A stretch of DNA of 64,000 nucleotides from Clostridium sp. (GTDB lineage: Bacteria > Bacteroidota > Bacteroidia > Bacteroidales > Bacteroidaceae). The stretch is taken from NCBI GenBank assembly GCA_023663705.1, contig JAMPGY010000005.1, positions 64,001-128,000 on the forward strand, read 5' to 3'. Numbering within the stretch: the stretch's first letter is position 1; each line of letters starts with the position of its first letter. The notes below the pieces were generated by a model, which was given only the letters and a program-made list of their open reading frames with translations, had not been told where the DNA came from and did no database searches. Below are positions 33,485 to 35,327 of this stretch, in pieces. Made by a program: the position numbers and the translations under genes.

Positions 33485-33546
33485 CTACTTTTTCGCGAAA
33501 CAAAGCAATGGAATTACATCGGGAATATCTGGCCTCGGCTTTCCAT

Positions 33547-33580
33547 TTCTTTCCAATGTTTGCAGAATTGGAAAGAATTG
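33547..33580 (+). repeat. 34-bp palindromic direct repeat, copy 1 (upstream of fic)
   Basis: It begins TTCTTTCCAAT and ends ATTGGAAAGAATTG. The first 31 bases are an 11-bp perfect inverted repeat (33547-33557 and 33567-33577) around a 9-base spacer. The identical 34 bases recur after the fic gene at 34932-34965. This copy overlaps the -33 TTTG (33559-33562) of the fic promoter, the position of a repressor operator. Confidence 0.85.
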
Positions 33581-33590
33581 ATTAGTTTTG
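33559..33590 (+). promoter_or_regulatory. Promoter of the fic gene (-33 TTTG, 20 bases, -7 TAGTTTTG)
   Basis: TTTG at 33559-33562 and TAGTTTTG at 33583-33590 have 20-base spacing, an ideal Bacteroidota promoter. The -33 box lies in the spacer of the palindrome. The ATG is 24 bases beyond the -7 box. Confidence 0.7.
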
Positions 33591-33614
33591 CAAACATTCA
33601 AAACAGTAAGCATC

Positions 33615-34919
33615 ATGATTGAAAAGGCTCCGAAAATAAGCGATTCAGAACTGCTACAGGCCATGATAATCAAGCCTGATGAGGAAACGGCACTTTGCGT
33701 GGACCAGATAAATGATGACTACGATTATTGGGACACCGCAAAATACAAACCGCGGCCAAAGAACTGCAGTGCCAAGAAATTATGGGCTTATGTGAAGGGT
33801 AGCAGGGTGAGCAAATACATTCGTGTGTGGGATAAGTATGGCATCTTGTTGCCCATCACCAACCGCATGCAACGGATGTGTCACGAGTTTGACATGAACT
33901 TCGGGGGCACATGGGGCACCAGCTCCATTTTACCCACCGAAAGCAAGGAACAGTTTTTGGTGAGTTCACTCATGGAAGAGGCCATCTATTCAAGCCAGAT
34001 GGAAGGCGCATCCACCACCCGCAAAGCGGCCAAGGAAATGCTAAAAAACAAGATGACTCCCAAAGACAAGTCTCAGCAGATGATTGCCAACAACTACCAG
34101 ACCATACAATTTATCACACAAAATAAAGAGAAGCCCCTATCAGCCGAACTGCTGCTGCAAGTGCACCGTCTGATGACAGAACGCACCTTGGAACGGCCCG
34201 AAGATGCCGGACGCTTCCGCACAAACGATGACGTTGTGGTGGAAAACGGCATCACACACGAAGTGGTTCACACGCCTCCGTCCAAAGATGACATTCCGCA
34301 GTTTGTGGACACGCTATGCCGCTTTTTCAACGACAGCAATCCCAGGGTTTTCATCCACCCTATCATCCGCGGCATCATCATTCATTTCATGATAGCCTAC
34401 ATCCATCCGTTTGCCGATGGAAACGGACGTACAGCACGAGCCATGTTTTACTGGTATATGCTGAAACAGGGCTATTGGCTCACGGAATACCTGTCCATAT
34501 CCCGCGTGATTGCACGCTCAAAAAAATCGTATGAGAAAGCCTTTCTATATACCGAGGCTGATGATATGGATTTGGGGTACTTCGTGTCATACAACCTCCG
34601 GGTACTTGCCCTGTCCTTCAAACAGCTGCAAACCTACATACAGAAAAAGCAGAACGAGAAACGGGCTGCCAGCCTGTTCCTGCAAATCGATGGAATAAAC
34701 GAAAGGCAAGCACAGATCATACGCCTGTATTACGACAACGCCAAGGAGGTATTGACCGTGAAAGATGTGCAAAACCGATTTCTAATCAGTCCCACCACTG
34801 CCAAAACTGACCTGATGGGACTGGTGGAACGTGGCATGCTTGACGAAATATCATTTAATAAAGTGAAGAAGGGCTACGTGAGAGGCGAACGGTTTGAGGA
34901 AGCCATAAAGAATTTATAA
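33615..34919 (+). CDS. Class II Fic-family AMP-transferase with C-terminal winged helix
   Basis: 434 residues from the ATG at 33615; an upstream TTG lies in the promoter. Residues about 1-90 are a poorly conserved N-terminal region. A Fic_N segment follows, carrying the auto-inhibitory helix SSQMEGA (Ser126, Glu130, Gly131; the [S/T]xxxE[G/N] motif, N-terminal as in class II). The Fic core has HPFADGNGRTAR with catalytic His264. The C-terminal 110 residues look like a winged helix-turn-helix (VKDVQNRFLISPTTAKTDLMG). Fic proteins attach AMP (or another nucleotide part) to Ser/Thr/Tyr side chains of target proteins. The DNA-binding-like tail and the palindrome over its promoter suggest autoregulation. 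The gene is flanked by 34-bp direct repeats. Confidence 0.92.
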   Translation: MIEKAPKISDSELLQAMIIKPDEETALCVDQINDDYDYWDTAKYKPRPKNCSAKKLWAYVKGSRVSKYIRVWDKYGILLPITNRMQRMCHEFDMNFGGTWGTSSILPTESKEQFLVSSLMEEAIYSSQMEGASTTRKAAKEMLKNKMTPKDKSQQMIANNYQTIQFITQNKEKPLSAELLLQVHRLMTERTLERPEDAGRFRTNDDVVVENGITHEVVHTPPSKDDIPQFVDTLCRFFNDSNPRVFIHPIIRGIIIHFMIAYIHPFADGNGRTARAMFYWYMLKQGYWLTEYLSISRVIARSKKSYEKAFLYTEADDMDLGYFVSYNLRVLALSFKQLQTYIQKKQNEKRAASLFLQIDGINERQAQIIRLYYDNAKEVLTVKDVQNRFLISPTTAKTDLMGLVERGMLDEISFNKVKKGYVRGERFEEAIKNL

Positions 34920-34931
34920 ACAAGTCTCCGA

Positions 34932-34965
34932 TTCTTTCCAATGTTTGCAGAATTGGAAAGAATTG
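34932..34965 (+). repeat. 34-bp palindromic direct repeat, copy 2 (downstream of fic)
   Basis: Identical over 34 bases to 33547-33580, including the 11-bp inverted repeat, and starting 13 bases after the fic stop codon. At this copy no -7 box is found at the spacing seen upstream, so it is not an obvious promoter. It could fold as a terminator-like hairpin in fic mRNA. Confidence 0.85.
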
Positions 34966-35262
34966 GAGACTCATTGCATCTCCCAAAGCCATTCATCTCC
35001 CTTTGGAGCAAATTGCGCCACAAGAACCGAAGCACAAACAGACACCCAAGTAGTCAATTCTCCAGACATACAACCACACAAAACAGCAATACAAGAACAA
35101 AAAGAAAGCGTTTTACCTATCATCAAACAAACAAGGTAACACCATAAGGCGTGAGATTCGCCCGGAAAGCTACTTCCGATTCCCTGCCCGTAAATAATAG
35201 AAGGAAAACACGCTACTCCATGCCCCCACGTCGATGGATTCCGCACGAGAGAGGAGGCAAAC
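34966..35262. other. Gap between fic repeat and frdB terminator; no gene recognised
   Basis: About 300 bases, AC-rich on the plus strand (many CAAACA/ACCAC strings). Open frames that start inside the repeat (MFAELERI...) have no recognisable family. It may be a remnant left by whatever event placed the second repeat copy. Confidence 0.4.
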
Positions 35263-35293
35263 AAAAAGCGCGGGCATGAGGCTCGCGCTTTTT
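35263..35293 (-). terminator. Intrinsic terminator of the frdCAB operon
   Basis: A 13-bp stem with one G-U pair (arms 35263-35275 and 35281-35293) and a 5-base loop. On the minus strand it ends in a run of T that is part of the stem. It lies 35 bases after the frdB stop. Confidence 0.8.
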
Positions 35294-35327
35294 ATCTGTA
35301 TTTCCCCGTTGGGGGAAGACGTTTCGA

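What the first reader, a model, noticed from the sequence alone, without database searches (positions are those of the whole stretch)
33547..34965. Fic gene bracketed by identical 34-bp palindromic direct repeats
The same 34 bases, each with an 11-bp inverted repeat around 9 bases, stand at both ends of the fic gene (33547-33580 and 34932-34965). The upstream copy overlaps the -33 box of an ideal promoter, and the protein ends in a winged helix, so it looks like an autoregulatory operator. The downstream copy has no matching -7 box, which suggests the unit gene-plus-operator moved, was duplicated and then lost, or can recombine out.
Basis: partly seen in the sequence, partly recalled or inferred. 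Interest (0 to 1): 0.7.

Follow-up and report, generated by a model that had tools for sequence, protein, structure and literature searches.

The report
Fic gene flanked by matched operators
A bacterial Fic gene, probably a phage-defence toxin that can also bind DNA, has matching copies of what looks like its own control site at both ends, and some related genomes keep a single copy of the site with the gene gone.

Summary
In detail: the same 34 bases (11-bp arms around 9 bases) stand at 33547-33580 and 34932-34965, around an intact 434-aa class II Fic protein with a predicted C-terminal winged helix. The arrangement recurs in Bacteroidales. Upstream copies lie in the promoter (-7 box after 43 of 47 sites); downstream copies sit at the stop codon without one (0 of 24). 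In the 8 paired loci whose arms differ, both copies share the new arms, and the two protein columns that best track arm type, 394 and 397, lie in the recognition helix. So both copies are probably binding sites of the Fic protein; the upstream one resembles the operator of the known autorepressor CccR. The downstream copy is not a decayed leftover. The window's own locus shows no such scar: its nearest relative there has neither gene nor repeat. What the second copy does (loop, roadblock, recombination edge) is inferred; nothing was tested at the bench.

The parts
33547..33580 (+). upstream palindromic operator (arms 33547-33557 and 33567-33577, 9-nt spacer)
   Evidence: same position in 53 upstream sites of fetched loci, the window's own included
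33559..33562 (+). -33 box TTTG inside the operator spacer
   Evidence: consensus recalled
33583..33590 (+). -7 box TAGTTTTG directly after the operator
   Evidence: TAnnTTTG after 43 of 47 near upstream sites
33615..34919 (+). fic, 434-aa class II Fic protein, intact
   Evidence: PADLOC SoFic model E 1.4e-47
33990..34007 (+). N-terminal inhibitory motif SSQMEG, fits (S/T)xxxE(G/N)
   Evidence: motif definition from PMC9755527 passages
34404..34439 (+). catalytic Fic motif HPFADGNGRTAR with His264
34704..34889 (+). predicted C-terminal winged helix, about residues 364-425
34785..34814 (+). recognition helix ISPTTAKTDL, residues 391-400; columns 394 and 397 best track operator arm type
34923..34971 (+). 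downstream palindrome (core 34932-34962, arms extended to 20 nt), 3 nt after the stop codon
   Evidence: no -7 box on either strand in 24 of 24 downstream sites
33510..35326 (.). segment absent from sister genome G011, where 78 bp lie in its place between carbonic anhydrase and sdhB
35263..35293 (+). separate terminator-like hairpin followed by T run, about 300 nt beyond the downstream copy

Best explanation
This is a SoFic-like class II Fic protein (AMP-transferring toxin with a built-in inhibitory helix) that represses its own promoter. Its C-terminal winged helix, as a dimer, binds the upstream palindrome, whose half-sites lie 20 bp apart on one face of the DNA, and blocks RNA polymerase between the -33 and -7 boxes. 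The second, matched palindrome at the stop codon is a second binding site for the same protein, kept in step with it by selection. It most likely strengthens repression by bridging the two sites 1.4 kb apart (loop), or stops polymerases from running into or out of the gene. As a by-product the two sites are direct repeats, so recombination between them deletes the gene and leaves one copy as a scar. Shown: the pair, its recurrence, the promoter position, joint change of arms, link with the recognition helix, one-copy fic-less alleles. Inferred: binding, repression, loop or roadblock, toxicity, and that the one-copy alleles arose by loss rather than precede gain.
For: Promoter position: -7 box after 43 of 47 near upstream sites, 0 of 24 downstream sites in either direction. 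Paired copies: 34 of 65 loci with both flanks; in loci found by protein alone, 11 of 23, against 0 of 920 shuffled flank pairs at that score. Joint change: 8 paired loci with other arms (CTTGCTAAT, CTTTATAAT, TATCGCAAA, TCTCCTAAT, TAGGGGAAA, CTTGCAAAT types) match in 19-22 of 22 arm bases within the locus; 3 of 20000 re-pairings reach the observed sum. Spacers of 29 standard pairs agree in 7.55 of 9 bases against 5.81 in re-pairings, 0 of 20000. Protein link: of the 434 window columns, 394 (T in 52 of 53 standard-arm loci, 1 of 10 others) and 397 rank first and second, both in the recognition helix. Precedent: CccR, a class II Fic protein with a C-terminal HTH, binds inverted repeats in its own promoter and represses it (PMC9755527, section 10 part 1 read). 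One-copy alleles.
Against: No binding, repression or toxicity was measured. 31 of 65 loci with both flanks lack a matched downstream copy, so it is not needed everywhere. Seven divergent relatives (45-58% identity) show no clear pair or no assignable operator, and five plasmid relatives at 30-36% have no matched pair, two of them only an upstream palindrome. Shuffle tests ignore relatedness; several pairs are close kin (L062/L090, L040/L082/L087, L043/L147, L138/L139/L143), and the pair score is not arm-specific: 54 of 506 cross-locus pairs also reach it, mostly loci of one arm type. The downstream copy also makes a strong RNA hairpin (-30.6 kcal/mol, z -8.1). In 3 of 29 standard pairs (L007, L062, L090) the spacers match as reverse complements, so the copies are inverted there.
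Confidence: 0.62

Rival explanations
1. The downstream copy is an RNA hairpin: it ends or protects the fic transcript, and its likeness to the operator is secondary.
For: Very stable hairpin, -30.6 kcal/mol against a shuffle mean of -10.97; it sits right after the stop codon in many loci.
Against: Only 2 of 24 downstream sites have five T in a row within 25 nt; the window has a separate terminator-like hairpin at 35263-35293, and sequence read by eye shows such hairpins after the site in L007 and L052. A hairpin needs complementary arms, not arms with the same letters as the upstream site, yet the letters change together in 8 of 8 paired loci with other arms.
Confidence: 0.12
2. The two copies are core sites of a site-specific recombinase acting in trans, and fic is the cargo of a cassette.
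For: 11-bp arms around a 9-bp spacer recall recombinase core sites (recalled); one-copy fic-less alleles; homology breakpoints between Paraprevotella-type genomes lie 20 nt from, at, and 11 nt from palindromes; a metallophosphoesterase gene sits behind a fic-type operator and promoter before hsdS in L059.
Against: No recombinase in the unit; the site overlaps a promoter in 43 of 47 cases; arms follow the Fic recognition helix; spacers differ between the copies in most pairs and are inverted in L007, L062, L090; the window's relative shows an empty place with no copy. Ordinary recombination between 34-bp repeats would give the same scars.
Confidence: 0.1
3. The palindrome is the target of some other widespread regulator; fic is one of many regulated genes, and lone sites are its other targets.
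For: 33 of 37 genomes picked for a lone site had no Fic relative at E 1e-20, so something other than this Fic could read them; lone sites occur in phage-like DNA too.
Against: Only 5 of 43 sites classed as lone have a -7 box on either side, and one of those (L062) is in truth upstream of a fic gene; neighbours of lone sites are diverse; in an unselected sample of 393 genomes 4 of the 5 with a site at up to 1 mismatch carry fic; arm type follows the Fic helix.
Confidence: 0.08

Closest known systems
CccR of Yersinia pseudotuberculosis (PMC9755527; passages and section 10 part 1 seen)
   Same: Class II Fic protein with C-terminal HTH; inverted repeats near the promoter boxes; autorepression shown there by reporter, gel shift, footprint and ITC.
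   Different: CccR site is 10-bp repeats 26 bp apart; here 11-bp arms 9 bp apart. In what I read no second copy behind the gene is described. CccR is secreted by a T6SS; not examined here.
SoFic / Sofic anti-phage Fic proteins (PADLOC model; PMC12249575, passages seen)
   Same: Best PADLOC hit E 1.4e-47 over residues 85-422; Fic motif and winged-helix end align with SoFic structures.
   Different: Far below the NCBIfam SoFic cut-off (65.4 of 550 bits); the E. coli Sofic paper describes a 47-aa antitoxin gene downstream, whereas here a palindrome stands at that place; I did not search for an antitoxin homologue.
CbFic2 (PMC10628234, passages seen)
   Same: Class II Fic with winged HTH that binds DNA.
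   Different: Binding was shown with random DNA; no own-promoter site is reported in the passages seen.
Phd-Doc type operons (recalled; listing only)
   Same: Fic-fold toxin under autoregulation by inverted repeats.
   Different: There a separate antitoxin binds the operator; here one protein would do both.

Membership tests
class II Fic protein | Fic motif HxFx(D/E)GNxRxxR | tested here: met
   HPFADGNGRTAR, residues 264-275, invariant in most positions of 30 relatives
class II Fic protein | inhibitory motif (S/T)xxxE(G/N) N-terminal to the Fic motif | tested here: met
   S126..E130 G131, invariant in 30 relatives
class II Fic protein | AMPylation activity | not testable with these tools
   needs an assay
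SoFic anti-phage system | match to the defence-library model | tested here: met
   PDLC03963 SoFic E 1.4e-47
SoFic anti-phage system | NCBIfam equivalog cut-off of 550 bits | tested here: not met
   65.4 bits; so it is SoFic-like, not filed as SoFic
SoFic anti-phage system | phage protection | not testable with these tools
   needs phage challenge
Fic-HTH autorepressor (CccR-like) | C-terminal HTH | tested here: met
   by sequence only; window protein alone is below Pfam cut-offs
Fic-HTH autorepressor (CccR-like) | inverted repeat at own promoter boxes | tested here: met
   33547-33580 between TTTG and TAGTTTTG
Fic-HTH autorepressor (CccR-like) | binding and repression | not testable with these tools
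   indirect support
site-specific recombination cassette | recombinase encoded in or beside the unit | tested here: not met
   window 33510-35326 holds fic as its only long gene; other loci not checked one by one
site-specific recombination cassette | one-copy empty sites | tested here: inconclusive
   met at L070, L002, L004, not met at the window's place in G011
intrinsic terminator | hairpin followed by a T run | tested here: not met
   hairpin yes, T5 within 25 nt in 2 of 24 downstream sites

The most novel reading that the evidence does not exclude
A self-bounded toxin module: a Fic toxin whose own paired operators both silence it and mark the edges at which the gene is lost, replaced or regained, so that lineages switch a costly phage-defence toxin off by deletion, leaving an operator scar that can later take a module back by homologous exchange. 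In this reading selection keeps the second operator partly because it makes the toxin removable.
Probability: 0.22. Interest if true: 0.78.

Novelty: new variant of a known kind. Interest (0 to 1): 0.6.

Why it matters
PMC9755527 says that class II proteins are about 80% of Fic proteins and that almost nothing is known of how their activity is controlled (passage). Here is a family in which sequence alone names the probable operators, the arm types, and the helix residues that may read them, so specificity can be tested by swaps. The second operator behind the gene and the one-copy fic-less alleles give a concrete handle on how a toxin gene can be silenced and also lost, and they mark genomes that probably once carried it.

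Tried and rejected
Promoter or operator of the downstream gene: rejected for most loci, since 0 of 24 downstream sites have a -7 box within 32 nt on either strand and in the window the next gene, sdhB, is convergent.

Phage or plasmid carriage as the usual vehicle: the protein scan of viral contigs found no relative; the phage collection has one close record, a 5-kb unverified human-gut scaffold with a 66% Fic and a matched pair of another arm type; plasmid relatives are 36% or less. Seven viral-contig stretches carry the palindrome; none holds a Fic relative by tblastn.

Polarising the L070/L075 pair with an outgroup: 15 of 41 genomes of that genus have the flanking TPK gene, one of them G450 itself; none of the other 14 loci had the PPDK neighbour in the stretch held, so gain or loss could not be told there.

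Lone sites: 43 sites were so classed, but the class is impure. L044 has fic just beyond the stretch, L062-4040 is upstream of a fic gene, L009-3708 and L010-4251 lie near one, L030 keeps the last 51 aa of fic and L018 perhaps its last 8 codons (score at the top of the null). L077 looks like a fourth scar with worn flanks. For the rest no occupied counterpart was found.

Dropped rows: six duplicate loci (L100, L101, L102, L130, L146, L148) before the counts; seven unassigned and two downstream-only loci left out of the Fisher test. L134 was counted as standard although its helix is not; afterwards I found a nearer palindrome of another type (TTGATAAT / ATTATCAA, 9-nt gap, 74 nt before the start), which would remove the only exception. 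That reclassification is after the fact.

Tree: built on residues 1-360 of 72 proteins; 18 of 69 inner forks are open, so the number of independent arm changes is not firm.

Literature: searches gave no title or abstract that describes paired operators around a Fic gene; most papers were seen as listings only, and subscription papers and preprints are not held.

Full report
What is there. Two identical 34-base copies, each an 11-bp inverted repeat around 9 bases, flank an intact fic gene at 33615-34919. They are the only two such sites in the 2.74-Mb genome within 3 mismatches. The upstream one fills the gap between TTTG (33559) and TAGTTTTG (33583). The downstream one begins 3 nt after the stop as an extended palindrome and has 20-nt arms.

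The protein. Pfam finds only Fic above cut-off. The Fic motif HPFADGNGRTAR and an N-terminal inhibitory motif SSQMEG are present, so it reads as an intact class II Fic. The best defence-library hit is SoFic at E 1.4e-47, but NCBIfam's SoFic equivalog cut-off is far from met. A C-terminal winged helix is supported by weak Pfam hits across 30 relatives and by profile alignment to SoFic; no model could be made.

Recurrence. A scan of one genome per species for exact arms gave 94 stretches. In these plus the window, 120 sites with the inner arms fall into 53 directly upstream of a fic relative, 24 directly downstream and 43 without a fic beside them in the stretch held. The titles of the 80 stretches printed and of those are Bacteroidales or families of it where they name a group that fine. 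Because these loci were picked by the pattern, I also looked at 23 fic loci found by protein alone: 11 have a matched palindrome pair, against 0 of 920 shuffled flank pairs. Among all 72 non-duplicate fic loci, 65 have both flanks and 34 of these are paired.

Upstream copies are promoter elements. A TAnnTTTG box follows 43 of 47 near upstream sites within 32 nt, 0 of 24 downstream sites on either strand, and 5 of 43 lone sites on either side.

Both copies change together. In eight paired loci the arms differ from the standard: L129, L131, L136, L137, L138, L139, L143 and the phage record L171. Within each locus the two copies agree in 19-22 of 22 arm bases; 3 of 20000 random re-pairings do as well. 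In 29 standard pairs the spacers agree in 7.55 of 9 bases on average against 5.81 in re-pairings (0 of 20000), in either orientation. These controls do not allow for kinship. A decayed remnant would not follow the upstream site in this way.

The protein follows the arms. Standard-arm loci carry PTTAK, ATTAK or PTTIK in the recognition helix (52 of 53); other-arm loci carry SMTAR, AMTAK, QMTAR, PGTAK, NQTAR, IKTTR, VKTTR or HTTAK. Of the window's 434 columns, 394 and 397 separate the two sets best (Fisher p 4e-9 and 2e-6, kinship not corrected). The single exception, L134, has a nearer palindrome of another type, noticed afterwards. In a tree of the first 360 residues the other-arm loci fall in several places, some among standard ones, with limited support.

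Occupancy varies. Within the window's genus 4 of 18 genomes have a Fic relative at 62% identity or more, and the same 4 have the palindrome. The window's Fic is nearest to one from a Muribaculaceae MAG (99/92 support, 74% identity over the part compared), not to those of its genus-mates, and its GC is 47.8% against 56-57% for the flanking genes: signs of horizontal gain. In the sister genome G011 (carbonic anhydrase 92% identical) the two flanking genes are neighbours, with 78 bp where the window has 1817, and with no palindrome.

One-copy alleles. L070 (PPDK 98.6% and TPK 95.5% identical to L075) has one palindrome where L075 has palindrome-fic-palindrome; its left edge matches the left of L075's upstream copy and its right edge the right of the downstream copy. 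L002 stands in the same relation to L087, L040, L012, L043 and others, between hsdM and hsdS. L004 and L049 lie in one genome and share 83 bp on the left (97.6%) and 223 bp on the right (95.1%), which overlap exactly at the palindrome; L049 has fic in between and L004 has not. Of 37 genomes chosen for lone sites, 33 had no Fic relative at E 1e-20; many are MAGs, so some absences may be gaps. In an unselected 393 genomes, 5 have a site at up to 1 mismatch; 4 of these have fic, and the fifth, G218, has it upstream of a RhuM-Fic gene. Sites with exactly 2 mismatches occur in 5 genomes, about as often as the reversed control (4 genomes), so those are probably chance.

Edges. Between G003 and G004 of the window's genus, the fic block is 87% identical while its surroundings differ; homology stops 20 nt beyond one palindrome, at the downstream palindrome, and 11 nt beyond the upstream one. 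This fits recombination at or near palindromes but is one comparison.

Context. Of 72 loci, 15 have hsdM before or hsdS after fic, 11 both (Pfam of representatives). The others are scattered among unrelated genes, as in the window.

Reading. The simplest account is autorepression through the winged helix, as shown for CccR, with a second cognate site kept at the gene's end. A loop or a roadblock is my guess for its role. Recombination between the copies then explains the one-copy alleles without a special enzyme. Whether that removability is itself selected is open.

Noticed in passing
L059 401-1342; L018 1826-2659: A calcineurin-like phosphoesterase gene sits behind a fic-type operator and promoter before hsdS (L059), and a relative stands before a palindrome with what may be the last codons of fic (L018), as if another gene had taken the fic slot.
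   Followed up: partly
L199 1501-2625: In G218 a palindrome with one arm mismatch lies about 120 nt before a RhuM-Fic fusion gene, a different Fic architecture.
   Followed up: partly
L006, L029, L032 with L166-L168; L072 with L169; L163 with L165: The palindrome stands in phage-like DNA without fic, shared between bacterial genomes and IMG/VR contigs.
   Followed up: partly
L010, L017, L025, L049, L069, L061: Some fic genes have a further upstream palindrome 114-130 nt before the start, beyond the usual 40-71 nt.
   Followed up: no
L129 downstream of fic: A second palindrome of the TTAGGGGAA type, as in the L138/L143 group, lies between fic and hsdS.
   Followed up: no
L192 6892-12785; L194 3705-5293: A third palindrome marks the far side of a variable block beside fic; the block holds about 5.9 kb in G003 and an AAA/DUF4143 ATPase gene in G004.
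   Followed up: partly
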